Assembly (NCBI GenBank): GCA_037833965.1
Contig: AP031354.1
Span: 1,590,001 to 1,654,000, forward strand
Length of the DNA: 64,000 bases
Source of the DNA: Marchantia polymorpha subsp. ruderalis
Lineage: Eukaryota; Streptophyta; Marchantiopsida; Marchantiales; Marchantiaceae
Reading direction: 5' to 3'
Part shown: piece by piece, positions 12,441 to 36,224 of the stretch
Numbering within the stretch: the first letter of the stretch is position 1
Layout: every line of letters starts with the position of its first letter
Program-made: the position numbers and the translations under genes
The notes under the pieces: model-generated
Databases searched by the model: none
Seen by the model: the letters and a program-made list of their open reading frames with translations, nothing else
Told to the model about the DNA's origin: nothing

Positions 12441-14100
12441 CATGATATAATGCGTGTACGCTCAAATTTCAAAAAGTATATTTCAAACTTGAATTTTCCA
12501 GTTTTTCAATATTTTTTAAACGTTTTTTGAAGTAATTTGAAATCTGTTTTTTTATTTACAACTGATATATTTTTACTTGATATCAAAGTGATATAATTGA
12601 TTTCAAATTATGAAAGCACATTTCTAAAGTTTGTCATGAACATATGTAGGTTTGCCAATGTGGTACCCCACTTTTGGCAATTTTGAGGAAATTAAAACAT
12701 TTTTGGAAAACTGTACCCTGGCAGCATTGTAAATAGCCTTCGGTACATCAAAACAGAGTGAATCCGGAAGATCGCGGGGATGCTCGAGGGATCTTGTAGA
12801 ATCTGGGATTTGGGGTGCCGCAGCAAGCACAGGCACCACCCTCCCTGCGAGCTCCGCAGTTAGGATCTCTACGGCGCAAGGCGCAAAACCCGCCTTCGGA
12901 GGTTGCGTCCGCGGCTGTAGGGAAACCCCCGTAATTAGGTCAACCCTCGAGCGCCTTGACCAAGTTAGGGTCCCGTTGGAAAGAGCTCGACGCGCTGATT
13001 CTAACGAGCCCAAGAACGCTTGGAACGGACGAGGACTTAGGGAGTTATCGCTACTGGAAGAAACGGAGGCGGTCGCCTACGGCGGAAGGAGTTCGCCACC
13101 GGCGCGAATTCCGCCTACGCGGAAGGGGGATTCAAGTTTTGTCCTATGCGCAGACGAAGGCGTTCGCCGGTGCACAGGCGAAGTAGGGTTAGGGAAGGCG
13201 CGAAGTGTAATAACCCACCAAAGGCTAAAACTGCAGTATGGTGGTAAAAAGATCGAACCCACAGGGACAGAGGCAACACACAGAGTAAAAGTGTCACGTT
13301 TAACAGACTTTTGGTAGAGTTTGAATTCTAGGCAACTGTCACTCCCAGAATACTGTAGTGCTCGACTCGGAGGCTCGACTCGGAGGAGGAACTCAACTCG
13401 GAGGATGCTCGGAGGATGCACGGTACAGCTTGGTCACTCAACACACACACACACACACCTGAAACTGGCAAAAAGCACAACTCGGAGGTCGGTCAGGACC
13501 TCCGCTTCGGATTTCAGGAGGAAAGTGTCTCGCAAGTTCACTCAGAGGTTCTGCAGGAAGTGCCTCCCACTCCGGCTTTTACTGCCCTTCCGCCAGGAAC
13601 TAGCGGGGGTACCCGGACTGGACTTCTCACTTCGGAACGAAGCCTCTACGTACGCCGTGGACGTCACCCTCGACTATCACACAAAACGCAGGGAGTGCAG
13701 ACCCGACTGAGAACTTACTGAAAACACGATCCAGTAACACACACACAACCTGAATTACAAACCAAGGTTTACACGAAGTAATGAAACTTCACATTGGCAT
13801 TCAGGGGAAACTTCCCGTAGGAGTACAATCAGGATATGTCACTCGAAGGAGTAAGGGGGAACTGTTCAAGTCTCTAACTCGCAGCCGGCTCTGAGTATCA
13901 GAAATCACCCGCAGGTGCAGATCCGCACTACTCAAGTCTCTAACCGGGTGCGAGCTCTGAACATTCAGCCGAAGGCCTTCAACTACAACATACGGTAACT
14001 TCGCTATGCTGCAGCTTCTCTACGTGGTGCCAGGACCAAAATGCACAAACACGCCAAGAAAGTGAGTTCCTGATCTGCACTTCCGAAACTGGAAGAGTCC

Positions 14101-14129
14101 CAAGGCAAAACGCCTTGATCTACTTTATA
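14101..14129 (-). promoter_or_regulatory. E1 3' LTR core promoter: TATA box plus hairpin
   Basis: On the minus strand TATAAA (14129-14124) is followed 12 bases from its start by the hairpin CAAGGCGTTTTGCCTTG (14117-14101). The TATA lies about 35 bases past the stop codon of the LTR ORF, so genomic RNA should start around 14100-14095 and the ORF lies within U3. The E2 and E6 LTRs have the same arrangement. Confidence 0.65.
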
Positions 14130-14162
14130 CCCTCAAAAGATCCTAACTAGCACTACGCTATC

Positions 14163-17003
14163 CTATCTACCACTCGCAGCATCTGCGCGAAACCAAACTA
14201 CTCTACTGCACTCAGCAGATCCGGTGCTGCGCCTCCTGCGCGCCGGACTGCTCCGCGTACTATCTCTACCCTGCCAGTCTTCCGACCGGCTGCGTAACCC
14301 CAGGCGTCGGAGCGCTGCAGTGACTTCCGACTGCAAGTGCGCCATAGTGTCGCGCGCACCCGACAGAAAAGTTTCTAATTTCCTTGCCACTCGCCGCCGA
14401 CTCCGACTGTCACCTTCCGTCAATGCCGCCGCCCGAAGCTCGAACTCCCGGAGTGTAACCCTCTCTTGAGCTGCCACCTCCCAATGGGTGTATCCGTTTA
14501 GACAACGAGTCACCCGTGCCGCCAACTCTTCTCGTGCCCTGCAGCTGCTCTCCACCTCTGCCAGCTGCATTTCTAAATCCGCACGTTGTGCTCTCAAATC
14601 CGAGCACTCGGTTTGCAAGCTGCACAACAACTCCTCATCCTCCTTGCGGGCTCGTTGACTTTCCTCTAAGGCGCGCGTCTGGCGCGCAAGCTCGGCTGCT
14701 AGGACTTCGTTCTGTCTCCGCTCCTCCTGCAGTTCCGACTCGATCCTTGCCCGTATTAGTTCGGCCTCCGCCTGACTCTTCGTCGCCGCATCCTCCTTCT
14801 GCTGCTGCAAGGCTTGGTACAGCTTCTGGGTGACCGCCAGGTGTTGTCGGAGGGCGGTGTTCCTATCCACATATACTCCGCATCTAGAGGCCCACCTTGC
14901 CACCTTGCTCCTCGTCCTTCGCCTGATTGTCTCCACATAAGACTGCGGTTTTAAGGCACTTCCGTATTTGGATGTCTTGCGATCCAGATATCGCAGGAGT
15001 GGAACTATCTGTTCGCACAGCACCCCTGTTGGCGTTTTCTGCACTGACTCCTCTTCTTGCTCTTCCGAGCTCGTATCATCCTCAGTCGCGAGGATTTCAG
15101 TCGCCACCGAATCCCTTGGCGACTCCCTGGAACTGTGGCGCGCAGCAGCTTCTGCTGCGACTGCTGCTCCACTGCCTGCTAAAATATCCAGGGCAGTGGG
15201 AGATCCCACTGCTTGAGCCCCTGTTCCGGCTCGATCTTCGGTTTGTGAAGGGGTCGACGCCGCAGTGACTTTTGTCGCTCTTGCACCGCCCGCTTCTGCT
15301 GCCTGTCCTTCCGGCACAATCTGCGCGGAAGGTGTCCTTGCTGAAGGTGCGTCCGCCGAAGGCGTCCGCACACTGGTCGTTGGCTCCATCCGTCTCGCAG
15401 TCGGCGAATCCGGCTGACTCTCTGTTGTCCGACTCGCAGTCGGCCGGCCAGCAGTTGTCCGACTGGGAGTCGGATACACCCTGCGCGTCTTGACTCCACT
15501 TGGCCTACTTGTTGGTGGCGTTCTTCCAGAAGTGCCTTCCGCCGAAGACGACCCTCTGAGGATTGTTGGCTCGTCAGCCAAACTCTCTTCCGCCTCCGGC
15601 CTGCTGTCCGGTTCAACGCGCCGTTCAGTTGGCCTTCCTTCCGTCTGTCGACCTTCAGTCATCCGACTCGCAGTCGGCCGGCTGTCAGTCCGTCCATCTC
15701 CTCCCGAAGGCCGTGGTGCCTTCTGTGCAGAGGTTTCTGCCGTCTTCCCTAGAACCTGAGTGATTATCTCTTCCTGTGTGAGATTCCGCCGGGTCGGAGT
15801 TCGCCTGGTCTCCTCAGTAACAGTTGGCATTCTGCGTGCCCTCTGTTTTGGTCGACTATGAGGCTCGGGGGTGGGCCGACCACGAGTCGGCGCAGCTGGT
15901 ACTTCCGGCTGCCTGTCCTCAGGTCTCTCATCCCACTTCCGCTTGCGCGGAATGCGCTCACTTCGACGTTCTTCTGCTGCTCTGGCTGGAGCCGGAGCCG
16001 GAGGCGTACTGGCAAGTTCCTCGTCCGGATCCGTGTCTACTTCGGCCTCCCTCGAATATCTACCTGGATAAGACCGGCTCAGCTGCGGAAACCGAGTTTT
16101 CTCAGCATTCGTCAAACATCCCATCGCCCGGTAAAACACGATTAAGTAAGGCGATAGATGATTGAGCGTTCCTCCCCTCTCTTCTTGCGCATGTTGGCGC
16201 GTCACCTTCCACAGAAGTCGTGCCCAATGCACCGGAGCTCCTGACAACACTAGCTCCACGAACTCTACCTGCCAACCATGCATGTAAGCGGTCTTGGTCG
16301 GCTGCAATATCTGCAGCAATGCTGTCGCGACATTTCTCCGCAATCGATCCTTGTAATCCCGAGTCCGGAAACCGTTCTTGGGATGTCTAGCCACCTTGAA
16401 GAGCTCATTGTAAGAGACTTCTTCCTCTTGGGACACTTTCACGCTGTCGGCCTCGAAGAGGAGATCCCCTTCCTCGCCGGCACACCTGCCCAACACCTGC
16501 GCCCAATTGCCAATTTCCCATCTCTCTGGGTGTGGGCGAAATCCGCGAGAAGGCTTGTGTCTCTCTTGCAGATACTCGCGCACCATCTCCGGACACGTCC
16601 AATTCCACCCCCATAGGAGAAAATCGAGCTTCAACCTCAACAGCACATCTTGAAATGCGCGTAGACCGATCTGCGGCACCCTGAGTGGAGACACTCGCAG
16701 CTGGGGAACCTTCGACATTGCGTTGCCTGCACACACACAAACGTTCTCCCTTTCGCTCGCTCTCTCACAATCGCCACTGCGCGTCGGCCACTCAAGCACT
16801 GACTGCTCACTCTCTCTACGCTCGTTCGAGATCGCTACTCCAATTCTTTCAAGGTCCGCCAAGATCCTTGCGCAACTCGTCTCCGCACTCTCTACTCTCA
16901 CTGCAGGTCGCTCCGCCCTTGCGCGTAATCTTGGAACTGGAAATCGCAAAGTCAAGAATGAGAGAATGAGACTGGAGCGCAGTCTTTTCTTCTCCGATTT
17001 CAA
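14163..17003 (-). CDS. LTR-encoded coiled-coil protein (3' LTR copy of E1)
   Basis: Unbroken ORF of 946 codons inside the U3 of the LTR; function unknown. The first ATG is at 17003, but homology to the E2 protein becomes strong only from the ATG at 16718 (MSKVPQL, residue 96), and E6 carries small indels upstream of that point, so I favour a start at 16718 (851 residues). About residues 100-330 form a conserved domain rich in Trp and Leu (LDFLLWGWN, WAQVLGRCAG, FRTRDYKDR, GGTLNHLSP). Residues 330-690 are low-complexity (Arg, Ser, Thr, Pro, Glu). A conserved block RYLDRKTSKY leads into a long coiled coil (about 745-900) and a basic tail. It resembles none of gag, pol or envelope. A distant link to plant mobile-domain or 'putative plant transposon protein' families is possible but untested. 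Confidence 0.8.
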   Translation of the reverse strand: MKSEKKRLRSSLILSFLTLRFPVPRLRARAERPAVRVESAETSCARILADLERIGVAISNERRESEQSVLEWPTRSGDCERASERENVCVCAGNAMSKVPQLRVSPLRVPQIGLRAFQDVLLRLKLDFLLWGWNWTCPEMVREYLQERHKPSRGFRPHPERWEIGNWAQVLGRCAGEEGDLLFEADSVKVSQEEEVSYNELFKVARHPKNGFRTRDYKDRLRRNVATALLQILQPTKTAYMHGWQVEFVELVLSGAPVHWARLLWKVTRQHAQEERGGTLNHLSPYLIVFYRAMGCLTNAEKTRFPQLSRSYPGRYSREAEVDTDPDEELASTPPAPAPARAAEERRSERIPRKRKWDERPEDRQPEVPAAPTRGRPTPEPHSRPKQRARRMPTVTEETRRTPTRRNLTQEEIITQVLGKTAETSAQKAPRPSGGDGRTDSRPTASRMTEGRQTEGRPTERRVEPDSRPEAEESLADEPTILRGSSSAEGTSGRTPPTSRPSGVKTRRVYPTPSRTTAGRPTASRTTESQPDSPTARRMEPTTSVRTPSADAPSARTPSAQIVPEGQAAEAGGARATKVTAASTPSQTEDRAGTGAQAVGSPTALDILAGSGAAVAAEAAARHSSRESPRDSVATEILATEDDTSSEEQEEESVQKTPTGVLCEQIVPLLRYLDRKTSKYGSALKPQSYVETIRRRTRSKVARWASRCGVYVDRNTALRQHLAVTQKLYQALQQQKEDAATKSQAEAELIRARIESELQEERRQNEVLAAELARQTRALEESQRARKEDEELLCSLQTECSDLRAQRADLEMQLAEVESSCRAREELAARVTRCLNGYTHWEVAAQERVTLREFELRAAALTEGDSRSRRRVARKLETFLSGARDTMAHLQSEVTAALRRLGLRSRSEDWQGRDSTRSSPARRRRSTGSAECSRVVWFRADAASGR

Positions 17004-18076
17004 GAACGTCCAACGTTCTTACTGGTTGCAACGTACGCAGCCGGCTATACGGCTTAACGGTTCGCCCTTTGCATGCGCGAATTCACGTCTCCGCATTGCG
17101 CGCATTCGCATGCTTAAACGTTGAATTCTCCCGCCGCCGCCACCTTCCGGACTCGAGTCCGCTGCAGGGTATACGTCGGCCCTGTTGTCTTTTCCTAACC
17201 CGCCCTTCTCCGGAGGCGTGTCGCCGCTGGTGCGTTCGTTATCCGTCGGCGCCTTGCTGGAGGCGCACATCCAGCCGGAGCGAATTACGCCGGCGCGCAG
17301 TCGTACCGCCTATTTTGTTCTTTATGCCTCGTCCGTTGCTGCCAGCGCATATCCGTCAGCGCAACTCATGCCAGCGCATCCGGCCGTCAGCGCCACGTCG
17401 GAGGCGTACATCCGACCGGCGCTTTCCTTCCATGAACAGCCGCCAAGGGCGCTTCCGACTCTGAGTTGGTTTCCTTCTGTGAGCGCGTGATTCCGCCGAA
17501 GGCGCATCGCCGAGGGCGTACGGGAATCCTTTCCGGCTGTGAACCCTAGCGCGAACGGCGCATGTCCGGCTACGAGTTTTCCGACGCTCATAACTTCTCC
17601 ATTCCTGATCCATCTCCGGCGCTCTTGGACTCGTTAGAACGAGCGTCCCGAGCTCTGTCTAATGCAACTTCCACCAACTGGATCTACCGTGTATCCCGAT
17701 TGTTATGAAGGTTTTCCCTTTCCGCGCTAGCGGCGCTTCGCCGAAGGCGCACTCATGGTCGGATGCCTTTAGAGGTCCGGGCCCTTCCCCTGACGTCTTT
17801 AGCACAACCTCCTCCTGAGGTGTCTGCGCCGGAAGCGTAGCTTCCTTATACGCTAGAGGCGCGTGAGTAGAGACACCTCAAAAAGGAGCTTTTGCCGAAG
17901 GCGCCGAAGACGTTGGCGTTGGTACATCCGACCACGTGATTCTTTGTGCCCTCGTGACGATCTCATCAATCCACTCTATTTAGCGTACCCTTCTCTAGCT
18001 ACAAACACTGCTTTGGTACTAGTTTTCTAAAATTGTTTAAATTCTGCAAAAAAAACAAAAAGCGTGTTACCACATG

Positions 18077-18087
18077 CCCCCCTCCTC
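18077..18087 (-). other. E1 polypurine tract
   Basis: On the minus strand TTGAGGAGGGGGGCA lies directly before the TGTGGTAAC start of the 3' LTR, the expected plus-strand primer. Confidence 0.8.
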
Positions 18088-18111
18088 AATTGTGAGCGCC
18101 CACGCGAACAT

Positions 18112-20952
18112 TTACACGTGGTATTTCTTCAGACGCCATCCGTTCACGCGGGTGCCTAACCATTCTCCCGTCAGTTCTGCGAGTTGGATGGATCCATTTG
18201 GAAAAACTTCTATCACCTTGTAAGGTCCCATCCACCTCAAGTGGAGCTTGCCTGGAAATCTAGCATGTCTGCTATCGTATAGCAGAGCCAAATCGCCCTT
18301 CTCCAGCAGTACTGGTTTGAGCCTTCGATCGTACTTCTCTTTCCGCCTGAGTTGTAATTGCTTTGTCCGATCTTCGGCCTCTTGACGTCTTTCCTCCAGT
18401 GCCATTACCTCTTGCAGTCTATATGCCTGACTTTCTTCCGCGTCCAGCCTTCTCTGATCTAAGGTCCTCTTGGTAGGTATCTCGAATTCGATGGGTAAGA
18501 TCGGATGCTGCCCATAAACTAGGAAGTAAGGTGTTTGCCTGGTGGTGACTTTTTCTGCCGTTCTATATGCCCATAAGGCGGCCGGTAGCTTGGTGTCCCA
18601 GTCATGAGCATGGTTTACAGTTACCTTGAGGAGTATCTTACAGAGTAATCCATTGGACTTCTCTGTCAGACCATTAGCCTTTGGGTTGTATGGAGTAGTC
18701 TTCCGATGCTTAATCTGGAAGTGCCGCGTCAAACTCTCTATCACCTGATTCAGAAAGTGCGTCCCTCTGTCACTGACTATTTCTAGGGGGCACCCGTAGC
18801 GGGTGATGATTGATTCGAATATGAACCGTGCCACTGCGGCTGCGTCATCGTGCCTTGTGGCTTCTGCCTCCACCATCTTGGTCGCATAGTCTGTTGCTAC
18901 CAATATGTAGCGCCTGCGCGTGCCTTTAGTGACAGGTTGTATTGGTCCCACGAAGTCGATCCCCCATTTTTCAAATGGTGCTAATGGCATGATTGGTGTA
19001 AGAGGCCATCTCGTGGTCGGAGTCGGCCTTCCCGTCCTCTGGCAGCTGTCGCATTTGCGAACGTAGTCGTGTACATCTTTGAACATCGTCGGCCACCAGT
19101 ATCCTGCATTCACAATTTTGGTCACTGTGTTTCTGGTGGCGTAGTGACCACCAGCGTCTTCTGTGTGCATGGCTTTGACAACTCGCGGTACTTCAGACTC
19201 CTCTAGACATCTGCACAACCTCTCGTCTGCCATTTTCTTGAACAAGACCCCCTGTTGAAGCTGGTAAGGTCCCGCTTTATGAACGAAGACTGTGCGCTGC
19301 TCCGCATCCAATCCTTCCGGACATTGGAGTGTGAGCAGAAACCTGTATAAGTCCGCGTACCTGGACTCATGGCTGGCGGACAACTGAAAAAGTTGTTCGT
19401 CGGGAAAATCATCCACTACTTCCTCCTCTATGGGTTCGGTCCATAGTCGGGAGAGGTAGTCCGCGTTCTCATGGTGAACGCCTTTCCGTGTCTGTACAGT
19501 GTAGGTGAATTCCTGCAGCAGTAGCACCCACCTGGCAATTCGTCCGGACAGATCCGCCTTCTTCACCAGGTGCTGTAAGGCGTAATGATCTACATGAAAC
19601 ACGAACTCATAGCAGATCAAATAATGTCGGAACTTCTTACAGGAGTACACCATTCCCAACGCCTCCCTCTCAGTTGTCGTGTACTTCTTCTCTGCTGCTG
19701 ACAACTGACGACTCGCGAAGTAAATCGGGTAGTCTTTCTTGTTGTCGTCCTTCTGACTGAGAACCACCCCGATTGCAAACGCCGACGTGTCTACATAGAC
19801 ATGGAAAGGTCTGTTCCAATCCGGACTTCTCAGAACCGGAGCAGTCGTCAGTTTGGCCTTGAGCGTTTCAAAGGCCAGCTGTTGCTCCTTGCCCCACACA
19901 TAGGGTTCATCCTTCTTAAGCAGCTTTGTCAGATCGGCTGCCAAGATGGCATACATATTTATGAACCTTCTGTAATAACCTACATGGCCAAGGAAGGCCC
20001 TCAACTCACGCAGATTCGTTGGCGGCTGCAGTTCGAGAATAATCTTCACCTTCTCTACATCCACTGCAATGCCATCGGACGAAACTCGGTGCCCCAGCAG
20101 GATTCCGCTGGTCATGAAAAAGAAACATTTCTCAGGGTGTAAGGACAAGCTGCTCTCCCTACATCTGTCGAACGTTTGCCGAAGATGGTTAAGGTGCTCC
20201 GACCTCTTACCGAAGACACAAAAGTCGTCGATGAAAATTTCTAGGAACTTCCTCAGGTGCTCTTGGAAGATGTTTGTCATCATCCGCTGGAACGTCGCTG
20301 GCGCGTTGCACAGACCGAACGGCATCTTGTGATAAGCATAGGCTCCCCAGTCGGTTGTGAAGGTTGTTTTGTCCTTGTCCTGTTCCCTGATGGACACCTG
20401 GTTGTAGCCGGAAAATCCGTCTAGAAAACTGTAGCATTCATGCCCTGCTACATGGTCCAGAATAGAGTCCGTGAAAGGGAGAGGGTGATGGTCCTTCCTC
20501 GTTGCTGCATTCAGCTTCCTGAAGTCCTGGCACACCCGGATCTTACCCGTCAGTTTCTTGGGTACGATCACGATAGGCGACACCCACTCGCTACTAAGTA
20601 CCGGGTAGATGATTCCTGCGCTCAGGTACTTATCGATTTCGTCCTTCACCAATAATGAATATTTTGGGTTGAGCCTGTATTGGCGTTGGCGAACCGGAAC
20701 TGCCTCGTCCAACAAGTCGATCCTGTGCTCTCCATACCTTGCAGGTATGCCTTTCATGTCTTCAATCCTCCATGCGAAGACATCCTCATACTGGCGAAGA
20801 AACGCCTGTACCCTGTTCAACTCTTCTCCTTGTACCTGGCTTGACACCTTCAAGCCTTTACCTGGACTGAGCTGCAGTTCGCAGCAATCACTCGGGTCAA
20901 CAATCCCCTCTGTGTGACTGATCTCGCTTCTGCCCAGTCCGGCTGCTAGTTG
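18112..20952 (-). CDS. E1 pol: reverse transcriptase, RNase H, integrase
   Basis: Pol of a Ty3/gypsy element. The frame opens directly after the gag-protease UAG (20953-20955) and runs 946 codons to a stop at 18112. There is no ATG near its beginning, so expression by readthrough is expected. Counting from 20853: reverse transcriptase with VCQDFRKLN (about 107) and catalytic FIDD (207-210, in place of the usual YxDD); RNase H with VDTSAFAIG (from about 354); integrase zinc module His563/His570/Cys601/Cys604 and catalytic Asp633, Asp695, Glu731 (KWGIDFVGP, SDRGTHF, NGLTEKSN). The C-terminus has a WMGPYKV module and ends NGWRLKKYHV, without a chromodomain. All catalytic residues are present, so it looks functional. 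Confidence 0.92.
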   Translation of the reverse strand, partial: QLAAGLGRSEISHTEGIVDPSDCCELQLSPGKGLKVSSQVQGEELNRVQAFLRQYEDVFAWRIEDMKGIPARYGEHRIDLLDEAVPVRQRQYRLNPKYSLLVKDEIDKYLSAGIIYPVLSSEWVSPIVIVPKKLTGKIRVCQDFRKLNAATRKDHHPLPFTDSILDHVAGHECYSFLDGFSGYNQVSIREQDKDKTTFTTDWGAYAYHKMPFGLCNAPATFQRMMTNIFQEHLRKFLEIFIDDFCVFGKRSEHLNHLRQTFDRCRESSLSLHPEKCFFFMTSGILLGHRVSSDGIAVDVEKVKIILELQPPTNLRELRAFLGHVGYYRRFINMYAILAADLTKLLKKDEPYVWGKEQQLAFETLKAKLTTAPVLRSPDWNRPFHVYVDTSAFAIGVVLSQKDDNKKDYPIYFASRQLSAAEKKYTTTEREALGMVYSCKKFRHYLICYEFVFHVDHYALQHLVKKADLSGRIARWVLLLQEFTYTVQTRKGVHHENADYLSRLWTEPIEEEVVDDFPDEQLFQLSASHESRYADLYRFLLTLQCPEGLDAEQRTVFVHKAGPYQLQQGVLFKKMADERLCRCLEESEVPRVVKAMHTEDAGGHYATRNTVTKIVNAGYWWPTMFKDVHDYVRKCDSCQRTGRPTPTTRWPLTPIMPLAPFEKWGIDFVGPIQPVTKGTRRRYILVATDYATKMVEAEATRHDDAAAVARFIFESIITRYGCPLEIVSDRGTHFLNQVIESLTRHFQIKHRKTTPYNPKANGLTEKSNGLLCKILLKVTVNHAHDWDTKLPAALWAYRTAEKVTTRQTPYFLVYGQHPILPIEFEIPTKRTLDQRRLDAEESQAYRLQEVMALEERRQEAEDRTKQLQLRRKEKYDRRLKPVLLEKGDLALLYDSRHARFPGKLHLRWMGPYKVIEVFPNGSIQLAELTGEWLGTRVNGWRLKKYHV

Positions 20953-20955
20953 CTA
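20947..20955 (-). promoter_or_regulatory. UAG CAA CUA: probable stop-codon readthrough signal
   Basis: The last gag-protease codons read GAC GAA TAG, followed by CAA CTA in the same frame as pol. The hexanucleotide after the stop fits the CAR-YYA rule of tobacco mosaic virus-type leaky stops. With readthrough the product would be about 1890 residues. Confidence 0.75.
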
Positions 20956-23790
20956 TTCGTCATCCGGATACACCTCGTCTCCTTCCTCCTCAATGGAGCA
21001 GCAAGTGACGTAGCCCACAAAGTCTTCCGACGTTTCGGTCTCTGAAGTGCATGATGAGCTGGTCTCCCCTCCGGTTGTGTAACCGGAGGTGGTGGAAGGT
21101 GTTTCGCCTTCATGAGGTACCTTGGTCCACGGTACGGTAATGACAGTCGGAGGGTCAGCAGGGCTACGGAACTGTAATCTCTTCCTACTCCAGTCACACC
21201 TTGCTTTGGCATCGTATAGCCAAGGTCTGCCAAGCAGCACATCATAACCTTTCTTCATCAGAGGTTGCAGTATTATGTAGGACAGTTGAAAGTCCACTCC
21301 TCCAATGTTGGTTCTCACATTGCTCAACATTCCTAGTGGCATTCTGCGTGTTTGATCGGCCAGTCGCAATACTCGGGATGTAGGCTCGAAGGTCTGGAAC
21401 CCCAAGGAGTTCGCTGTCTCCTCGGTCATGATATTCACGCCCGAGCCGGAGTCCACTGGTACCTTCTGAATGACACAGCCTCCGATCTCTACTTCGATCT
21501 CTGGTGGTCCCAGGTCTCCTCCTTCCACTCTGTACACATCCGGAAGTTTCTCTTTTCGGGGTTTGCGTGGTCTGCGCAACGAAAGCATCAGCATCCTCCT
21601 GTACGTCTTATTGTCTTCCAACAACTGGTGGAAGGAAATATTTGCCCTCTGGCTCCCCATGTCTTTCACTATGTCGTAGGGAGTGTTGGAAGTCACGGCC
21701 GGAAGGTTCCCTGTACTCGCGGTCGGAAGGGGTGTAGGGGGCCTAACCGCCTTCCGGTCGTCGGATGTCATTCCGGCGTTCAGTGCTTCCTTGATGAGGT
21801 GACTCACCTCATCTTTGATGTCCGGAAGGTAATCTCGAGTCCGGAACTCTTCTGAATACCTATCCGCCTTTTCTGAGTTCTGCTCCGGCTGGGTGTTTCT
21901 CATAGCCGGAGGTGTACCCGGCCTTCTCCTCGGGCCTTCTCTAACTTCTTTAGACTTCCTCCTCTCTTCCCTACGCTCGAGGCGGCGAGTGTCCTCGTGG
22001 CCTTCTCCTTTCCTCTTCGAACTTCGGGTTTCTACCCGACCGCACATTACTTCTTCCTCTGGCCATACTTCGTTTTCTTCAGCTGGGTCCAGACTCAGTT
22101 CTACCTGGTTGACCTGCACTTCTTCCTTGCCAGGTGTTGCTACGAAACGCACGGTTGGCCTAGGGATTGGTGGCTGGTCACATTCAGCTGCTGTATGTCC
22201 GGACTTCTTGCAATTGCTGCACAATGGTGCATACCCCATTGGCCTCCTCGGGTGGGGACAACTTGGCGCGTAATGCCCCATGTCTCCGCAGTTGTAGCAA
22301 CCATCGAATTGTGCTCGAGGTCGGTTATTTCCTGTGTGATTTCCTGGAGGTGCCATGCGTCTTGGTGGGAGTGTACCCGCCATTTCCCTTGGAACAAAGC
22401 GCGGTATATGCACCGGTGGGTTCGGAGTTGTAGCTGGAGCTGTCTGTACCGAGTAGGCGGTGTCCTCAACCTGCTCAGCATAATACATAGGCGGCTCAGC
22501 ATAATACATGGGGGTCTCCCACTGTGGTGCCCATTCGACCGCATTCACTGGGTAAGATGGCCTCGCGGACATGCACTCCGTGTTGGCATGTCCCACCTGT
22601 CCGCACGTAGTACACCAGAGATTTGCTCGTTGTCTCGCAGGTGATTTACGTCGGTCTTGGCCTCCCACTACATGAACTTTCAGGTCCGCAAAATTCTTCA
22701 CCAGGTTGTCTACCTTGGCTGCGATGTCCCCTTGAGTCTTCACTGGGATTCCCTTACCTCGATCCTTCTTCTTGATCGCACTGCGTTTCTTCTTCCGTCT
22801 TTCTTCTTCTGAAGATGACGAGTCCTCTTCCTCCTCCGAGGAAGAACTTGATTCGGAGGAGCTTGATTCTTCTGTCGAGGAAGGCGAGTTCCTTCTCTTC
22901 CGACGTCCGCCTTGCGACTTCTTCTTCGTCGACCGTCGGTCGCGTCTTCGAGTGTCAAGGGTTGACGTCTCAAAGGTCTCCGCGGAAGCTATCACATCTT
23001 GGATTGTGTCAGTCTTGCCTCTCCTACAGAAGGTCTCCATTTCTCTTGAGAGCCCCGTCACATACCAATCCACTGCCTGTTGTACCGAATACGGTTCTCC
23101 CGGGCCTGTCTTCGGAATTCGATCTAGGAGGTCTTGGAATCTCTCCGTGTAGTCTCGAAGATTCTCCTTCCGCTCGCGTCGAAGATTTCGAAGCCGGGTC
23201 AGAACTCGACTGTCGTATCCGAGTTCGCGGAACCGCTTCAGAAACTTTTCCTTGAGCTGAGCCCAGGTCCGGATGCCAGTGGGGTCGGTGCTCTCATGGT
23301 TGTACCAGCTACGCGCTCGTCTGCGTAGCAGGCTAGGAAAGATTCGTAATCTGTCTTCATCACTGGTCTCACGATTGGCGATGGAGACAGACTCGAAGAG
23401 CTTTATGTATGAATCTGCATCATCGTCGTCGCCCGTTCCCGTGTATCTTGGATACGAATGTTTGGTGGTAGGTTGGGAAAACACCTGGCGGAGATTGGCT
23501 TGATGTTCTGCCATCGGTGATCCTGTCGACGGACTGATCCTAGGTTGGCCAAACTCAGGAAGAGTTCCCGTCGGAGGGATGTCCAATAGAACTGTTAGCT
23601 CAATGCTCTCGGTAGGTGAACTGGAACGCCTTTGTCTTCCAGTAGTCGGTGATGGCGATCTTTCTGCAGAGTCCTCACTGGGAGTCTTCTTTTTAGTTCG
23701 CCGTTTTGTTTCCACGGCTTTTTCTGAATCTCGACGGAGTTTCCGTGTGGCTCTCGCACTCAGGTTTCCCACACTATCGCTCGTCGACAT
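20953..23790 (-). CDS. E1 gag-protease polyprotein
   Basis: ORF of 945 codons starting at ATG 23790, about 45 bases after the primer site. Residues about 120-280 are the retrotransposon gag (capsid) domain (ARSWYNHE, AQLKEKFLKRF, LRDYTERFQDLL). A Ser/Glu-rich acidic stretch follows (about 300-335). Three CCHC zinc knuckles lie at about 393-406, 498-511 and 524-537, all C-X2-C-X4-H-X4-C. An aspartic protease follows, with active site DSGSGVNIM (from about 780). The frame ends at the UAG shared with pol. It packages element RNA and matures the polyprotein. Intact as read. Confidence 0.93.
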   Translation of the reverse strand: MSTSDSVGNLSARATRKLRRDSEKAVETKRRTKKKTPSEDSAERSPSPTTGRQRRSSSPTESIELTVLLDIPPTGTLPEFGQPRISPSTGSPMAEHQANLRQVFSQPTTKHSYPRYTGTGDDDDADSYIKLFESVSIANRETSDEDRLRIFPSLLRRRARSWYNHESTDPTGIRTWAQLKEKFLKRFRELGYDSRVLTRLRNLRRERKENLRDYTERFQDLLDRIPKTGPGEPYSVQQAVDWYVTGLSREMETFCRRGKTDTIQDVIASAETFETSTLDTRRRDRRSTKKKSQGGRRKRRNSPSSTEESSSSESSSSSEEEEDSSSSEEERRKKKRSAIKKKDRGKGIPVKTQGDIAAKVDNLVKNFADLKVHVVGGQDRRKSPARQRANLWCTTCGQVGHANTECMSARPSYPVNAVEWAPQWETPMYYAEPPMYYAEQVEDTAYSVQTAPATTPNPPVHIPRFVPREMAGTLPPRRMAPPGNHTGNNRPRAQFDGCYNCGDMGHYAPSCPHPRRPMGYAPLCSNCKKSGHTAAECDQPPIPRPTVRFVATPGKEEVQVNQVELSLDPAEENEVWPEEEVMCGRVETRSSKRKGEGHEDTRRLERREERRKSKEVREGPRRRPGTPPAMRNTQPEQNSEKADRYSEEFRTRDYLPDIKDEVSHLIKEALNAGMTSDDRKAVRPPTPLPTASTGNLPAVTSNTPYDIVKDMGSQRANISFHQLLEDNKTYRRMLMLSLRRPRKPRKEKLPDVYRVEGGDLGPPEIEVEIGGCVIQKVPVDSGSGVNIMTEETANSLGFQTFEPTSRVLRLADQTRRMPLGMLSNVRTNIGGVDFQLSYIILQPLMKKGYDVLLGRPWLYDAKARCDWSRKRLQFRSPADPPTVITVPWTKVPHEGETPSTTSGYTTGGETSSSCTSETETSEDFVGYVTCCSIEEEGDEVYPDDE

Positions 23791-23833
23791 TCACCGAGCA
23801 TTGCTGCTCAAGGTTTCTGGTGTTGACGCACTG

Positions 23834-23851
23834 TCCCCGGCAGCGGCGCCA
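23834..23851 (-). other. E1 primer binding site, Asp-tRNA type
   Basis: Minus strand TGGCGCCGCTGCCGGGGA lies 22 bases inside the 5' LTR. It differs at one base from the TGGCGCCGTTGCCGGGGA site used by many plant Athila/Tat elements, complementary to the 3' end of tRNA-Asp. Confidence 0.8.
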
Positions 23852-23873
23852 AAAAGAAGTTGTCGGCTCCTTA

Positions 23874-26800
23874 TGTAATAACCCACCAAAGGCTAAAACT
23901 GCAGTATGGTGGTAAAAAGATCGAACCCACAGGGACAGAGGCAACACACAGAGTAAAAGTGTCACGTTTAACAGACTTTTGGTAGAGTTTGAATTCTAGG
24001 CAACTGTCACTCCCAGAATACTGTAGTGCTCGACTCGGAGGCTCGACTCGGAGGAGGAACTCAACTCGGAGGATGCTCGGAGGATGCACGGTACAGCTTG
24101 GTCACTCAACACACACACACACACACCTGAAACTGGCAAAAAGCACAACTCGGAGGTCGGTCAGGACCTCCGCTTCGGATTTCAGGAGGAAAGTGTCTCG
24201 CAAGTTCACTCAGAGGTTCTGCAGGAAGTGCCTCCCACTCCGGCTTTTACTGCCCTTCCGCCAGGAACTAGCGGGGGTACCCGGACTGGACTTCTCACTT
24301 CGGAACGAAGCCTCTACGTACGCCGTGGACGTCACCCTCGACTATCACACAAAACGCAGGGAGTGCAGACCCGACTGAGAACTTACTGAAAACACGATCC
24401 AGTAACACACACACAACCTGAATTACAAACCAAGGTTTACACGAAGTAATGAAACTTCACATTGGCATTCAGGGGAAACTTCCCGTAGGAGTACAATCAG
24501 GATATGTCACTCGAAGGAGTAAGGGGGAACTGTTCAAGTCTCTAACTCGCAGCCGGCTCTGAGTATCAGAAATCACCCGCAGGTGCAGATCCGCACTACT
24601 CAAGTCTCTAACCGGGTGCGAGCTCTGAACATTCAGCCGAAGGCCTTCAACTACAACATACGGTAACTTCGCTATGCTGCAGCTTCTCTACGTGGTGCCA
24701 GGACCAAAATGCACAAACACGCCAAGAAAGTGAGTTCCTGATCTGCACTTCCGAAACTGGAAGAGTCCCAAGGCAAAACGCCTTGATCTACTTTATACCC
24801 TCAAAAGATCCTAACTAGCACTACGCTATCCTATCTACCACTCGCAGCATCTGCGCGAAACCAAACTACTCTACTGCACTCAGCAGATCCGGTGCTGCGC
24901 CTCCTGCGCGCCGGACTGCTCCGCGTACTATCTCTACCCTGCCAGTCTTCCGACCGGCTGCGTAACCCCAGGCGTCGGAGCGCTGCAGTGACTTCCGACT
25001 GCAAGTGCGCCATAGTGTCGCGCGCACCCGACAGAAAAGTTTCTAATTTCCTTGCCACTCGCCGCCGACTCCGACTGTCACCTTCCGTCAATGCCGCCGC
25101 CCGAAGCTCGAACTCCCGGAGTGTAACCCTCTCTTGAGCTGCCACCTCCCAATGGGTGTATCCGTTTAGACAACGAGTCACCCGTGCCGCCAACTCTTCT
25201 CGTGCCCTGCAGCTGCTCTCCACCTCTGCCAGCTGCATTTCTAAATCCGCACGTTGTGCTCTCAAATCCGAGCACTCGGTTTGCAAGCTGCACAACAACT
25301 CCTCATCCTCCTTGCGGGCTCGTTGACTTTCCTCTAAGGCGCGCGTCTGGCGCGCAAGCTCGGCTGCTAGGACTTCGTTCTGTCTCCGCTCCTCCTGCAG
25401 TTCCGACTCGATCCTTGCCCGTATTAGTTCGGCCTCCGCCTGACTCTTCGTCGCCGCATCCTCCTTCTGCTGCTGCAAGGCTTGGTACAGCTTCTGGGTG
25501 ACCGCCAGGTGTTGTCGGAGGGCGGTGTTCCTATCCACATATACTCCGCATCTAGAGGCCCACCTTGCCACCTTGCTCCTCGTCCTTCGCCTGATTGTCT
25601 CCACATAAGACTGCGGTTTTAAGGCACTTCCGTATTTGGATGTCTTGCGATCCAGATATCGCAGGAGTGGAACTATCTGTTCGCACAGCACCCCTGTTGG
25701 CGTTTTCTGCACTGACTCCTCTTCTTGCTCTTCCGAGCTCGTATCATCCTCAGTCGCGAGGATTTCAGTCGCCACCGAATCCCTTGGCGACTCCCTGGAA
25801 CTGTGGCGCGCAGCAGCTTCTGCTGCGACTGCTGCTCCACTGCCTGCTAAAATATCCAGGGCAGTGGGAGATCCCACTGCTTGAGCCCCTGTTCCGGCTC
25901 GATCTTCGGTTTGTGAAGGGGTCGACGCCGCAGTGACTTTTGTCGCTCTTGCACCGCCCGCTTCTGCTGCCTGTCCTTCCGGCACAATCTGCGCGGAAGG
26001 TGTCCTTGCTGAAGGTGCGTCCGCCGAAGGCGTCCGCACACTGGTCGTTGGCTCCATCCGTCTCGCAGTCGGCGAATCCGGCTGACTCTCTGTTGTCCGA
26101 CTCGCAGTCGGCCGGCCAGCAGTTGTCCGACTGGGAGTCGGATACACCCTGCGCGTCTTGACTCCACTTGGCCTACTTGTTGGTGGCGTTCTTCCAGAAG
26201 TGCCTTCCGCCGAAGACGACCCTCTGAGGATTGTTGGCTCGTCAGCCAAACTCTCTTCCGCCTCCGGCCTGCTGTCCGGTTCAACGCGCCGTTCAGTTGG
26301 CCTTCCTTCCGTCTGTCGACCTTCAGTCATCCGACTCGCAGTCGGCCGGCTGTCAGTCCGTCCATCTCCTCCCGAAGGCCGTGGTGCCTTCTGTGCAGAG
26401 GTTTCTGCCGTCTTCCCTAGAACCTGAGTGATTATCTCTTCCTGTGTGAGATTCCGCCGGGTCGGAGTTCGCCTGGTCTCCTCAGTAACAGTTGGCATTC
26501 TGCGTGCCCTCTGTTTTGGTCGACTATGAGGCTCGGGGGTGGGCCGACCACGAGTCGGCGCAGCTGGTACTTCCGGCTGCCTGTCCTCAGGTCTCTCATC
26601 CCACTTCCGCTTGCGCGGAATGCGCTCACTTCGACGTTCTTCTGCTGCTCTGGCTGGAGCCGGAGCCGGAGGCGTACTGGCAAGTTCCTCGTCCGGATCC
26701 GTGTCTACTTCGGCCTCCCTCGAATATCTACCTGGATAAGACCGGCTCAGCTGCGGAAACCGAGTTTTCTCAGCATTCGTCAAACATCCCATCGCCCGGT

Positions 26801-28743
26801 AAAACACGATTAAGTAAGGCGATAGATGATTGAGCGTTCCTCCCCTCTCTTCTTGCGCATGTTGGCGCGTCACCTTCCACAGAAGTCGTGCCCAATGCAC
26901 CGGAGCTCCTGACAACACTAGCTCCACGAACTCTACCTGCCAACCATGCATGTAAGCGGTCTTGGTCGGCTGCAATATCTGCAGCAATGCTGTCGCGACA
27001 TTTCTCCGCAATCGATCCTTGTAATCCCGAGTCCGGAAACCGTTCTTGGGATGTCTAGCCACCTTGAAGAGCTCATTGTAAGAGACTTCTTCCTCTTGGG
27101 ACACTTTCACGCTGTCGGCCTCGAAGAGGAGATCCCCTTCCTCGCCGGCACACCTGCCCAACACCTGCGCCCAATTGCCAATTTCCCATCTCTCTGGGTG
27201 TGGGCGAAATCCGCGAGAAGGCTTGTGTCTCTCTTGCAGATACTCGCGCACCATCTCCGGACACGTCCAATTCCACCCCCATAGGAGAAAATCGAGCTTC
27301 AACCTCAACAGCACATCTTGAAATGCGCGTAGACCGATCTGCGGCACCCTGAGTGGAGACACTCGCAGCTGGGGAACCTTCGACATTGCGTTGCCTGCAC
27401 ACACACAAACGTTCTCCCTTTCGCTCGCTCTCTCACAATCGCCACTGCGCGTCGGCCACTCAAGCACTGACTGCTCACTCTCTCTACGCTCGTTCGAGAT
27501 CGCTACTCCAATTCTTTCAAGGTCCGCCAAGATCCTTGCGCAACTCGTCTCCGCACTCTCTACTCTCACTGCAGGTCGCTCCGCCCTTGCGCGTAATCTT
27601 GGAACTGGAAATCGCAAAGTCAAGAATGAGAGAATGAGACTGGAGCGCAGTCTTTTCTTCTCCGATTTCAAGAACGTCCAACGTTCTTACTGGTTGCAAC
27701 GTACGCAGCCGGCTATACGGCTTAACGGTTCGCCCTTTGCATGCGCGAATTCACGTCTCCGCATTGCGCGCATTCGCATGCTTAAACGTTGAATTCTCCC
27801 GCCGCCGCCACCTTCCGGACTCGAGTCCGCTGCAGGGTATACGTCGGCCCTGTTGTCTTTTCCTAACCCGCCCTTCTCCGGAGGCGTGTCGCCGCTGGTG
27901 CGTTCGTTATCCGTCGGCGCCTTGCTGGAGGCGCACATCCAGCCGGAGCGAATTACGCCGGCGCGCAGTCGTACCGCCTATTTTGTTCTTTATGCCTCGT
28001 CCGTTGCTGCCAGCGCATATCCGTCAGCGCAACTCATGCCAGCGCATCCGGCCGTCAGCGCCACGTCGGAGGCGTACATCCGACCGGCGCTTTCCTTCCA
28101 TGAACAGCCGCCAAGGGCGCTTCCGACTCTGAGTTGGTTTCCTTCTGTGAGCGCGTGATTCCGCCGAAGGCGCATCGCCGAGGGCGTACGGGAATCCTTT
28201 CCGGCTGTGAACCCTAGCGCGAACGGCGCATGTCCGGCTACGAGTTTTCCGACGCTCATAACTTCTCCATTCCTGATCCATCTCCGGCGCTCTTGGACTC
28301 GTTAGAACGAGCGTCCCGAGCTCTGTCTAATGCAACTTCCACCAACTGGATCTACCGTGTATCCCGATTGTTATGAAGGTTTTCCCTTTCCGCGCTAGCG
28401 GCGCTTCGCCGAAGGCGCACTCATGGTCGGATGCCTTTAGAGGTCCGGGCCCTTCCCCTGACGTCTTTAGCACAACCTCCTCCTGAGGTGTCTGCGCCGG
28501 AAGCGTAGCTTCCTTATACGCTAGAGGCGCGTGAGTAGAGACACCTCAAAAAGGAGCTTTTGCCGAAGGCGCCGAAGACGTTGGCGTTGGTACATCCGAC
28601 CACGTGATTCTTTGTGCCCTCGTGACGATCTCATCAATCCACTCTATTTAGCGTACCCTTCTCTAGCTACAAACACTGCTTTGGTACTAGTTTTCTAAAA
28701 TTGTTTAAATTCTGCAAAAAAAAACAAAAAGCGTGTTACCACA
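23874..28743 (-). repeat. E1 5' LTR (4870 bp)
   Basis: Same structure as the 3' LTR, shifted by 10668 bases; the only difference I found is one extra A in a run near 28720. TATA box at 24792-24797, hairpin at 24769-24785. Confidence 0.95.
24831..27671 (-). CDS. LTR-encoded coiled-coil protein (5' LTR copy of E1)
   Basis: The 946 codons translate identically to the copy at 14163-17003; the favoured start is the ATG at 27386. Being in the U3 of the 5' LTR, it lies upstream of the promoter for the genomic RNA, so it would need its own promoter further up in U3 (roughly 27700-28740) or an upstream host promoter. The same ORF in the 3' LTR would lie in the 3' part of the genomic transcript. Function unknown. 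Confidence 0.8.
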   Translation of the reverse strand: MKSEKKRLRSSLILSFLTLRFPVPRLRARAERPAVRVESAETSCARILADLERIGVAISNERRESEQSVLEWPTRSGDCERASERENVCVCAGNAMSKVPQLRVSPLRVPQIGLRAFQDVLLRLKLDFLLWGWNWTCPEMVREYLQERHKPSRGFRPHPERWEIGNWAQVLGRCAGEEGDLLFEADSVKVSQEEEVSYNELFKVARHPKNGFRTRDYKDRLRRNVATALLQILQPTKTAYMHGWQVEFVELVLSGAPVHWARLLWKVTRQHAQEERGGTLNHLSPYLIVFYRAMGCLTNAEKTRFPQLSRSYPGRYSREAEVDTDPDEELASTPPAPAPARAAEERRSERIPRKRKWDERPEDRQPEVPAAPTRGRPTPEPHSRPKQRARRMPTVTEETRRTPTRRNLTQEEIITQVLGKTAETSAQKAPRPSGGDGRTDSRPTASRMTEGRQTEGRPTERRVEPDSRPEAEESLADEPTILRGSSSAEGTSGRTPPTSRPSGVKTRRVYPTPSRTTAGRPTASRTTESQPDSPTARRMEPTTSVRTPSADAPSARTPSAQIVPEGQAAEAGGARATKVTAASTPSQTEDRAGTGAQAVGSPTALDILAGSGAAVAAEAAARHSSRESPRDSVATEILATEDDTSSEEQEEESVQKTPTGVLCEQIVPLLRYLDRKTSKYGSALKPQSYVETIRRRTRSKVARWASRCGVYVDRNTALRQHLAVTQKLYQALQQQKEDAATKSQAEAELIRARIESELQEERRQNEVLAAELARQTRALEESQRARKEDEELLCSLQTECSDLRAQRADLEMQLAEVESSCRAREELAARVTRCLNGYTHWEVAAQERVTLREFELRAAALTEGDSRSRRRVARKLETFLSGARDTMAHLQSEVTAALRRLGLRSRSEDWQGRDSTRSSPARRRRSTGSAECSRVVWFRADAASGR

Positions 28744-29231
28744 CGAAGTCCGCCTACGCACAGGCGTTTGCCTGTGCACAGGCACTTCGGCGTTGGCGGA
28801 AAATCCGCCTTGGGCCCTAGAAATGCGCCTTGTGAGGTAGAAAGTGTACGGCGCCTTCCGCGCCAGCGCAGCTCAGCGTACGTCGGAGGAGCCGCCAGAG
28901 TAATCCAATAGGTACGGACCGTGCGGACGGCACGGGTGGATGCGCTCTTGGACGGACGGAGTTGCGGCGGCGGAAGCGCCGACGGAGAGACAAGGAACGG
29001 ACAGGCTGGACGGAGACGGCTGACCACGGTCAACGCCTTCCGCGCCAGCGCAGCGCCGCGGACGGAATTCGCCTGCGCACAGGCGAACGCCTGTGCACAG
29101 GAGGATGTTCAAGTTCCGCGCCGGCGGAGAATCCGCCGAGGCCCCTGCCTGCGCACAGGCAGGAGTTGAATTTTTGTCCGACATGCGGACGCACGCGTCA
29201 AGACAGAAGGAGATTGGCCGAAGGGCGGTAC

Positions 29232-30089
29232 TGCAACCTCCGGGCTGACTCTCACTCAGGTTTACCTCTGATGGCTTTGTGGTAGCGCATCATGGTTCTA
29301 GAAGACTAAGATTCATACTCTCACTCATGTCCCAAACACCTTCTCTCACAAACTCTCATGTATCACTCCAACTCACACGCAAACTCTCCTCACATCACCC
29401 TCTTCACATAAACGCAAACACACGTCGATACTCCAAGATACTCAAAAACTTCACTCCTTCATTACTGAAACAAGTACTCAACATGACTCTCCAAACTTGC
29501 TTGAGAGGTGCTACTCTACCTCTCTATTTATACTACTTGAGAAGTTACCATAGTAACATGTGGTAATTTCTCCTAACTTACTTTTACCTAGGTAAGTTTG
29601 ACTAACCTTCTCTACGTGGCAACATGCCATTGGCCTACCTAAACCCTCTAGAAGCTTCCGGAATCCAAGGTTGAGGTGGCGACATGCCATTTGAAGCTTT
29701 TAAACTTCTACAAGCTTCCTAGCCACTAAGTCAACATTAGACTTAGTCTAGCCAATCATCTTTCATACATTTAGTCAAACCAATCAAATCCAAGCTTCTA
29801 GTCAAATATCTAATCCCTTGGAATCTAGAACTTTTGTATAAGACAAAATAGAAGTGCTCACTCCTTGTAAAAGACAAAATAGAAGTGCTCACTCCATTCT
29901 TCTAGAACTCCGCTAATTACTCCGCCAACTATAGACATTGTAGCTAAACTTAGTCATGACTAGATAAACTTAGTTATAACTAACTAGTTTAGTCATAACT
30001 AGCTAGTCTTAGCTATGCCTTGGCTAATCATCCTTATTCCCTTGACCACTTCTAAGACTTAGTACATATGTGCAACACCCGGTCTTACA
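29232..30089 (-). repeat. E3 3' LTR (858 bp)
   Basis: Every stretch compared with the copy at 36225-37082 is the same. The polypurine tract CCGGGGGTAAA (minus strand) adjoins it at 30090-30100. Confidence 0.93.
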
Positions 30090-30112
30090 TTTACCCCCGG
30101 ACCAAGATTTCA

Positions 30113-30480
30113 CTACGCCCTCGGAGTGAAAGAATCTGATCTTCGATGGAATAACTTCAACTTGTCGTGGTTGACTCGATCGAAGTGACGTCCCCCTAAC
30201 TCCTTGATGTCATAAGTGAAATTTCCCCACACCTTACTTACTATGAAAGGTCCAAAATACTTAGGAAGAAACTTTTTCCTAGCTCTCTTGTATCTAATTG
30301 CATCAAAGAGCATCACCCAATCACCTTCCTTGAACGGCTTCAAGTTCTGGTTTCCACTTCGTTTGTCGTGATACTTCTTCTGCAATTGTTGAGCCCGCTC
30401 CACTCGTACCATGGCTAGTGCTCGAGCTTCCTCCAACTCCATCAATTGTTGTTGGCGAGATTTGATGGCTTCTGCTCCAT
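30113..30480 (-). pseudogene. E3 integrase C-terminus, out of frame with pol
   Basis: This frame carries what should be the end of integrase: a Gln/Glu-rich helix, then FKEGDWVMLFD and KYFGPFIVSKVW, matching the end of E1 pol (LEKGDLALLYD, RWMGPYKV). It is shifted relative to the main pol frame near 30477-30482 (CAAATGG on the minus strand). A one-base deletion is most likely; programmed -1 shifting is a less likely alternative. Confidence 0.75.
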
Positions 30481-34880: not shown

Positions 34881-34888
34881 TTCCAACT

Positions 34889-34910
34889 AATTTTTTTTTT
34901 TTTTTTTTTC
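34889..34910 (-). repeat. Homopolymer A run just upstream of E3 gag
   Basis: About 22 consecutive T on the plus strand (A in the RNA sense) end a few bases before the gag start region. An A-rich leader could help translation of the second ORF, but this is speculation. Confidence 0.6.
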
Positions 34911-35101
34911 TATTGGAAATTTATATGGGGCTTCCTAATACAATATAAACAACACTAACTCCATCCTTGAGTAATTCATCAAAGGAAACACAAAAGGAAT
35001 TGGTTGTTCCAAGATAGCCAAAGCTCTCTCCTCTCCTAGGCATACGATGAGTCTTACCCTCATCATCATCTTCTCCATCATTCGAATGATGATCTCCATC
35101 T

Positions 35102-35545: not shown

Positions 35546-36201
35546 TTTCCCATAAGGTAGAAACCACTCAAAAGACCTCTCCCAGAAACGCTATCTACTT
35601 GACGAAAACTGTGAATGAAGAAATCAAAAACTTTTGCTTTGTTATCTTGCTTTTGTACCCCCTCAACTTCAAATCAACATAACTTTGTCTCTAGACGTGA
35701 TCTCTCAGTGAAATTTTCACTCAAACGTAGCTTATCTTTCAATACACACTCGTACGAAGTTTCAAAGCCTAATTCAAAATACAGAAAAAGTAATCAACTC
35801 TGTACAAACTTTCCAGAGAGCAGACTTTTGATACCCGTGAAAACCCACTCAACTTCTAATTCTCATATCTTTCTGTTAACACATGATCTAGACCTGAAAC
35901 AAAAACGTAAATGTTCTCTATCTTCCACTCTAAAATCAATAAAAACTTTGAAAGAATACCTTCAAAAATACTTTTTCGGTGTCTAAGATCACTTTTCTCT
36001 CAAAAAGACATGTTTACGTGAACAAAACATACAAAATCACTTCTATGCTATCATATGAGACTATGGGATACACAAAAGGAATTTCGCTCTCAAGCACACT
36101 CTCCGCTCTTTCATTCCCCAATGTTAACATCAAGTGATCCCTCATGGATACTTTCTCTCGAGCTAGAAATCGAATCCTAAACATTCCGCCTTCTAGATTG
36201 A

Positions 36202-36220: not shown

Positions 36221-36224
36221 AAAA

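What the first reader, a model, noticed from the sequence alone, without database searches (positions are those of the whole stretch)
14163..17003. A gypsy LTR family carries a large protein gene inside U3
Both E1 LTRs (14163-17003 and 24831-27671) contain an unbroken 946-codon ORF. It lies entirely inside the LTR and upstream of the TATA box that should start genomic RNA, so it is U3-encoded. A homologous ORF sits at the same place in the diverged E2 LTR (37303-40452), in E4 (62512 on) and, broken, in E6. The N-terminal domain and C-terminal coiled coil are conserved between families while the middle is free. It is not gag, pol or a recognisable envelope. The closest concept I know is the U3-encoded accessory gene of mouse mammary tumour virus; I know of no plant equivalent. 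Each insertion delivers two gene copies, and a solo LTR keeps one.
Basis: partly seen in the sequence, partly recalled or inferred. Interest (0 to 1): 0.9.

Follow-up and report, generated by a model that had tools for sequence, protein, structure and literature searches.

The report
Liverwort retrotransposon gene inside its LTR
In the liverwort Marchantia a family of retrotransposons carries a conserved protein gene wholly inside its repeated ends, just upstream of what looks like the element's own promoter, so every insertion brings two gene copies and even a leftover single end keeps one.

Summary
Confirmed, with corrections. E1 is a Ty3/gypsy element (13206-28743, minus strand, TSD CGAAG); its LTRs of 4869 and 4870 bp differ by one base. 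Each holds an open frame of 946 codons (851 from the likely ATG). The LTR's only TATAWA lies 34 nt after the ORF stop and recurs 37 nt after it in the diverged E2 LTR, so the ORF is inferred to lie in U3. The host is Marchantia polymorpha. All 48 E1-type copies scored are open; 42 form 21 same-strand pairs about 10.6 kb apart. The TATA motif has 3952 exact genome matches (control 0). The N-domain is under purifying selection: 20 of 21 copy pairs with dS<1 have dN/dS 0.12-0.33. The LTR start lies upstream of the ORF in 19 of 30 loci of an older group, so the arrangement predates E1/E2; in 30 loci of the most distant group that start was not found. No transmembrane segment, no Pfam family; NLS-like motif, probable coiled coil. 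I read it as a nuclear accessory factor; transcript and function are untested. Ten searches of an open-access library found no plant precedent.

The parts
13206..28743 (-). E1, a Ty3/gypsy element with TSD CGAAG on both sides
23874..28743 (-). E1 5' LTR, 4870 bp
13206..18074 (-). E1 3' LTR, 4869 bp, one base shorter than the 5' LTR and otherwise identical
24831..27671 (-). U3 ORF in the 5' LTR, 946 codons open from TTG; likely ATG at 27386 (851 codons)
14163..17003 (-). U3 ORF in the 3' LTR, 946 codons open from TTG; likely ATG at 16718 (851 codons)
14122..14129 (-). TATAAAGT of the E1 3' LTR (LTR position 3946), the only TATAWA of the LTR; starts the 31-base motif with a palindrome
20953..23790 (-). 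gag with zinc knuckles and an aspartic-protease-like part
18112..20853 (-). pol: reverse transcriptase, RNase H, integrase; same frame as gag after one TAG
12659..41461 (+). E2 solo LTR (pieces 12659-13205, 28749-29231, 37087-41461; about 5.4 kb), TSD GCCAA, split by E1 and by the element at 29232-37082
   Evidence: TSD and limits read from the printed flanks
37303..40452 (+). U3 ORF of E2, 1049 codons from the first ATG, 965 from the ATG at 37555 that matches the E1 start
45926..50802 (-). E3 solo LTR of the E1 type (TSD AATAC); ORF 49444-46889 has one stop at codon 8
61268..64000 (+). E4 LTR of the E2 type, cut by the window end; ORF from 62512 open for 496 codons

Best explanation
The ORF is a real accessory gene of a large Marchantia Ty3/gypsy clade, encoded wholly in U3. 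Shown: position in both LTRs, homology between families, purifying selection. Inferred: U3, from the conserved TATA box just after the ORF. Because reverse transcription copies U3 into both LTRs, each insertion carries two copies and a solo LTR keeps one; on the genomic RNA the ORF is a third cistron (R-U5-gag-pol-ORF-R). I infer that it is expressed either from a TATA-less promoter in the first 1.0-1.4 kb of the LTR or from a subgenomic form of the genomic RNA, and that its message ends in the LTR. From its NLS-like PRKRKW/PRKRRW motif, basic N- and C-terminal parts, a probable long coiled coil and the lack of a membrane segment, I infer a nuclear, oligomeric factor acting on the element's own LTR or pre-integration complex (anti-silencing, transactivation or nuclear entry). 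This last step is a guess at about 0.35; the anatomy and the selection I hold at about 0.9; the confidence below is for a selected U3 accessory gene as a whole.
For: Identical position in two LTRs bounded by a TSD. 48 of 48 scored E1-type copies open, 42 of them in 21 same-strand pairs 10,561-10,684 bp apart. 42 of 44 scored E2-type copies without a stop. E1-E3 nonsynonymous:synonymous 50.5:52.5 against 69% nonsynonymous expected from the non-coding mutation spectrum, P 1.4e-5; N-domain 7:19, P 1e-5; E2-E4 10:16, P 0.0014. dN/dS 0.12-0.33 in 20 of the 21 pairs with dS<1 among 13 N-domains. TATA motif conserved between E1 and E2, 3952 exact genome matches, control 0. LTR start upstream of the ORF, right orientation, in 19 of 30 loci of an older group. 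No transmembrane stretch (19-residue Kyte-Doolittle maximum 1.22 and 1.14), RKRK/RKRR clusters, proline-free C-terminal stretches of 233 and 241 residues.
Against: No transcript or protein evidence was available. The middle third does not differ from neutral (P 0.19) and the C-part only weakly (P 0.04). Stronger conservation of the leader just before the ATG than of the rest of distal U3 is marginal (P 0.045 and 0.097). The LTR start was not found in 0 of 30 loci of the most distant group, i.e. in none of them, and its one longer stretch lacks the TATA motif at up to 8 mismatches. Nuclear role, oligomerisation and targets are inferred from sequence alone; the E2 middle is not basic (pI 6.6).
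Confidence: 0.75

Rival explanations
1. It is an ordinary sense 3' accessory ORF of the Athila/Tat kind that came to lie in U3 because the polypurine tract moved upstream to the end of pol; its role is whatever those ORFs do (particle, chaperone or cell-to-cell). It overlaps the best explanation and differs in origin and role.
For: Sense orientation and place after pol: pol ends 37 bp before the 3' LTR. Sense aORFs between pol and the 3' LTR are the common plant kind (PMC7264820), and an Athila 3' aORF of sunflower has a Transposase_32 domain and a predicted nuclear signal (PMC11728184, passages).
Against: No match to PF20167, PF03078 or PF04195 in 49 relatives scanned. Search of the genome with PF20167 found nothing, but its controls were silent too. 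No membrane segment.
Confidence: 0.35
2. The genomic RNA starts 5' of the ORF, so the ORF lies in R/leader and not in U3, and is the first cistron of the genomic RNA.
For: About 1.0-1.4 kb of LTR lies upstream of the ORF, with marginally higher conservation next to the ATG; no transcript has been mapped here.
Against: The only TATAWA of the E1 LTR is downstream of the ORF, recurs in E2, and its 31-base motif is exact at 3952 places. A leader of over 3 kb with a long upstream ORF would hinder gag translation (general knowledge).
Confidence: 0.12
3. A captured or accidental open frame, carried along without function.
For: No known domain; E1 is very young, so its own open frame proves little; one duplicated stop-bearing pair (L025-L026) shows dN/dS 0.90.
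Against: Purifying selection within and between families; open in E1 and E2 at 42% identity. L025-L026 rests on very few changes and is what neutral decay after insertion would give.
Confidence: 0.04

Closest known systems
MMTV Sag, the LTR-encoded superantigen of mouse mammary tumour virus
   Same: A gene inside the LTR that makes the LTR exceptionally long (PMC3026287, passages) and stays with LTR copies.
   Different: Animal retrovirus; Sag is a type II transmembrane protein (PMC11998498, passages), here there is no membrane segment; MMTV LTR about 1.3 kb, here 4.9-5.4 kb. No homology is claimed; no sequence comparison with Sag was made.
Sense 3' accessory ORFs of plant Ty3/gypsy elements (Athila/Tat type)
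   Same: Sense strand, downstream of pol, in most copies of a family, unknown function.
   Different: Those are described as internal, between pol and the 3' LTR (PMC7264820, parts 1-2 of 3 read); here the ORF is inside both LTRs. No Pfam match.
Antisense accessory ORFs (Grande gene23, RIRE2, Retand ORF4)
   Same: Accessory ORFs conserved across copies; the Grande product is nuclear and has its own promoter (PMC7264820). A similar layout of N-domain, linker and coiled coil in Transposase_28 proteins is my recollection, not a test.
   Different: Opposite strand, internal position, and no PF04195 match here.

Membership tests
Ty3/gypsy LTR retrotransposon | LTR pair, TSD, gag, protease-like part, RT, RNase H, integrase in that order | tested here: met
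Sense 3' accessory-ORF elements of plants | ORF in sense after pol | tested here: met
Sense 3' accessory-ORF elements of plants | ORF in the internal region, between pol and the 3' LTR | tested here: not met
   The ORF is inside both LTRs
Athila-type Transposase_32 / ATHILA ORF1 | Profile match to PF20167 or PF03078 | tested here: not met
   No match among 49 relatives at E up to 10, though the filters drop most weak matches; genome search with PF20167 uninformative, controls silent
Env-like plant retrotransposon | Transmembrane segment in the third ORF | tested here: not met
   Kyte-Doolittle 19-residue maximum 1.22 (E1), 1.14 (E2); no dedicated predictor run
U3-encoded accessory gene (as in MMTV) | Whole ORF inside the LTR, 5' of the genomic transcription start | tested here: inconclusive
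   Inside the LTR: met. 5' of the start: met by the TATA box only, no mapped start
MMTV Sag | Type II transmembrane superantigen | tested here: not met
   No membrane segment
Retroviral gag / second capsid gene | Profile similarity to gag | tested here: not met
   hhalign against E1 and E5 gag: probability 0.1 percent (only two gag rows)

The most novel reading that the evidence does not exclude
A land-plant retrotransposon clade has made its LTR a self-contained gene cassette: distal promoter, regulator gene and genomic promoter in one unit. The U3 protein acts in trans on thousands of LTRs, solo ones included, as a transactivator or anti-silencer, so solo LTRs are dispersed regulator genes and not dead remnants.
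Probability: 0.2. Interest if true: 0.88.

Novelty: new variant of a known kind. Interest (0 to 1): 0.7.

Why it matters
Accessory ORFs of plant LTR elements are known but are described as internal; a conserved 2.6-kb gene wholly in the LTR changes what an LTR, and above all a solo LTR, can do, since it keeps a gene next to a promoter. It occurs in a tractable model plant, in a clade whose promoter motif is found 3952 times, so expression in silencing mutants, protein location and dependence of transposition on the ORF can be tested. It also means that such ORFs can be filed as host genes: a 499-residue protein 95% identical to E1 over 59% of it is listed as Mp_8g15400.

Tried and rejected
Rejected: chance ORF; overlapping antisense gene (longest antisense frame 135 codons); gag duplicate (two gag rows only); envelope; a known Pfam domain (only weak coiled-coil and low-complexity scores, best PF11802 at E 0.0018 and Extensin_1 at 0.00019, each below any use for naming); a solved-structure relative (one hit up to E 1: an S-layer protein, E 0.097); a splice acceptor right before the ATG as a general feature (visible in E1, not convincing in E2 or the loci). 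Led nowhere: two AlphaFold runs of residues 1-240 with 31 and 35 rows (mean pLDDT 48 and 43, mainly helical), too poor for a fold search, so none was made; PF20167 over the genome (controls silent). A likeness to Athila Transposase_32 is an impression from memory and nothing rests on it.

Limits of the counts: genome protein searches score only the best candidates (48 of 14,948; 81 of 10,917; 84 of 11,444; 44 of 14,144). The second protein-database search scored 7992 candidates that shared most words. In one search only the + strand of the loci was scanned, so reverse-lying loci were missed there, and the rows of the models (A3, A5, A6) lack them; one search scanned the other strand too. One search used 13 sequences chosen for an open N-domain (E1, E2 and 11 of the 60 loci L009-L068); loci broken there were dropped; 57 of the 78 pairs have dS of 1 or more or saturated. 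Of the 30 loci L039-L068, L039 and L056 are the same place.

Full report
Host. The window is G000:C5:1590001-1654000 of a genome of 241,466,482 bases in 9 contigs. Proteins named as Marchantia polymorpha match it at 98-100% (P0011, three stretches) and 99% (P0005, two stretches). The published Tak-2 assembly v7.1 has 9 sequences, 241,484,302 bp and a 5.6-Mb U chromosome with a triplicated repeat (PMC13078153, passages); contig C1 here has hits up to 5.45 Mb and a hit pattern that repeats three times. The host is M. polymorpha, probably Tak-2.

Anatomy. E1 spans 13206-28743 on the minus strand with TSD CGAAG and LTRs of 4869 and 4870 bp that differ by one base in an A run. gag and pol carry the expected domains and lie in one frame, split by a single TAG. 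The pol stop lies 37 bp before the 3' LTR. In LTR coordinates the ATG is at 1357, the stop ends at 3912 and the only TATAWA is at 3946. E2 is a solo LTR of about 5.4 kb, 12659 to 41461, TSD GCCAA (my reading), into which E1 and another gypsy element (29232-37082, identical 858-bp LTRs) have jumped. That element has no further ORF of 200 codons besides gag-pol, though its pol is 48% identical to E1's. E3 (45926-50802) is a solo LTR of E1 type. E4 starts at 61268; the 274 bases before it resemble an E1-type LTR start (88%).

More than chance. At its base composition a 946-codon open frame has probability about 2e-17, and 1000 base shuffles gave at most 276. The E1 and E2 proteins align along their length at 42% identity, with the N-domain and the C-terminal part conserved and a low-complexity middle. 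The start codon context AACGCAATG is shared by E1 and E2, which is why I take the inner ATG as the start; whether the open stretch before it is translated is unknown.

Selection. Between E1 and E3 there are 50.5 nonsynonymous and 52.5 synonymous changes; the mutation spectrum of the flanking non-coding LTR predicts 69% nonsynonymous (P 1.4e-5). The N-domain has 7 and 19 (P 1e-5), the C-part 23.5 and 20.5 (P 0.04), the middle 20 and 13 (P 0.19, not different from neutral). E2-E4 gives 10 and 16 over 412 codons (P 0.0014). Over 13 N-domains from the window and older loci, 21 of 78 pairs have dS below 1; 20 of these have dN/dS 0.12-0.33 and one, a duplicated stop-bearing pair with very few changes, 0.90. 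These are counting estimates on sequences chosen for being open, not a tree-based model.

Spread and age. The 48 E1-type copies scored are open, and 42 form 21 same-strand pairs 10,561-10,684 bp apart, as two LTRs should; 6 have no partner among those listed. Of 44 E2-type copies scored 42 lack a stop; 14 of them lie in same-strand series with steps of 11,091-11,204 bp. Older relatives, mostly with stops, fill. In 19 of the 30 loci L039-L068 the LTR start of E1/E4 is found upstream of the ORF in the right orientation; in the 30 loci L009-L038 of the most distant group it is not. One stretch of that distant group ends, 3' of the ORF relic, in sequence 77-81% similar to the E1 LTR end, but lacks the TATA motif at up to 8 mismatches. 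The TATA-palindrome motif occurs 3952 times without mismatch, reversed control 0; junctions of LTR end and PBS occur 1174 times, so many of these LTRs seem to be solo or truncated.

Relatives elsewhere. Two searches of 5.8 billion proteins gave 13 and 41 hits. Of the 41, 37 are named M. polymorpha and 4 come from unnamed contigs; how many other liverworts the database covers I do not know, so restriction to Marchantia is not shown. Scans of 7, 15 and 49 proteins against Pfam gave no domain for the ORF beyond weak coiled-coil and low-complexity scores.

Mechanism. Shown: position, conservation, selection. Inferred: U3, from the TATA box; expression from a distal-U3 promoter or a subgenomic RNA; nuclear location from PRKRKW/PRKRRW and basic N- and C-terminal parts; oligomerisation from heptad-like, proline-free C-termini (a crude score, no coiled-coil program). 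Transactivation, anti-silencing or nuclear import is the part I commit to at about 0.35; the main rival is the role of a structural or env-like 3' aORF.

Comparison. MMTV is the known case of a gene in the LTR; a review says its LTRs are exceptionally long because the 3' LTR encodes Sag (PMC3026287, passages). Plant accessory ORFs are described as internal (PMC7264820, parts 1 and 2 of 3 read); an Athila 3' aORF with a Transposase_32 domain is described in sunflower (PMC11728184, passages). Ten searches of the held open-access library listed no plant LTR-encoded gene that I could recognise; matching passages were checked in PMC1560396, PMC11302176, PMC8282616 and PMC11117352, and TE passages in the Marchantiopsida genome paper PMC9985172. 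Other listings were judged by title and abstract start. Subscription papers are mostly not held, so a precedent in print is possible. Verdict: a new variant of a known kind.

Noticed in passing
23847-23873 (E1) and genome-wide: The presumed tRNA primer site (TGGCGCCGCTGCCGGGG) starts after a 22-nt spacer past the LTR end, not 2-5 nt. 1174 junctions match a pattern allowing 5-34 nt, and those listed with letters have 22-23 nt. How the spacer is removed before integration is unexplained.
   Followed up: partly
20950-20961 (minus strand): gag and pol are in one frame split by a single stop in the context GAA TAG CAA CTA, which fits the leaky UAG CAR YYA type (motif recalled), suggesting programmed readthrough.
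   Followed up: partly
14099-14129 and the same place in E2: The TATA box is followed by a palindrome, CAAGGC-GTTTT-GCCTTG in E1 and CCAGGC-GTTTT-GCCTGG in E2. Of 3952 exact matches 25 have the A..G mismatched form; the C..T form was not counted.
   Followed up: partly
29232-37082: A second gypsy element with identical 858-bp LTRs and a 1519-codon gag-pol, probably very young, nested in the E2 LTR; flanked by GTAC on both sides.
   Followed up: partly
4062-7187 and 53591-56712: Inverted copies of about 3.1 kb, 88% alike, of some other repeat.
   Followed up: no
G000 C3:22623864-22649408 and C5:11025176-11050731: Three E2-type ORF copies in a row at 11.2-kb steps, as expected of LTR-internal-LTR-internal-LTR arrays made by recombination between LTRs.
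   Followed up: no
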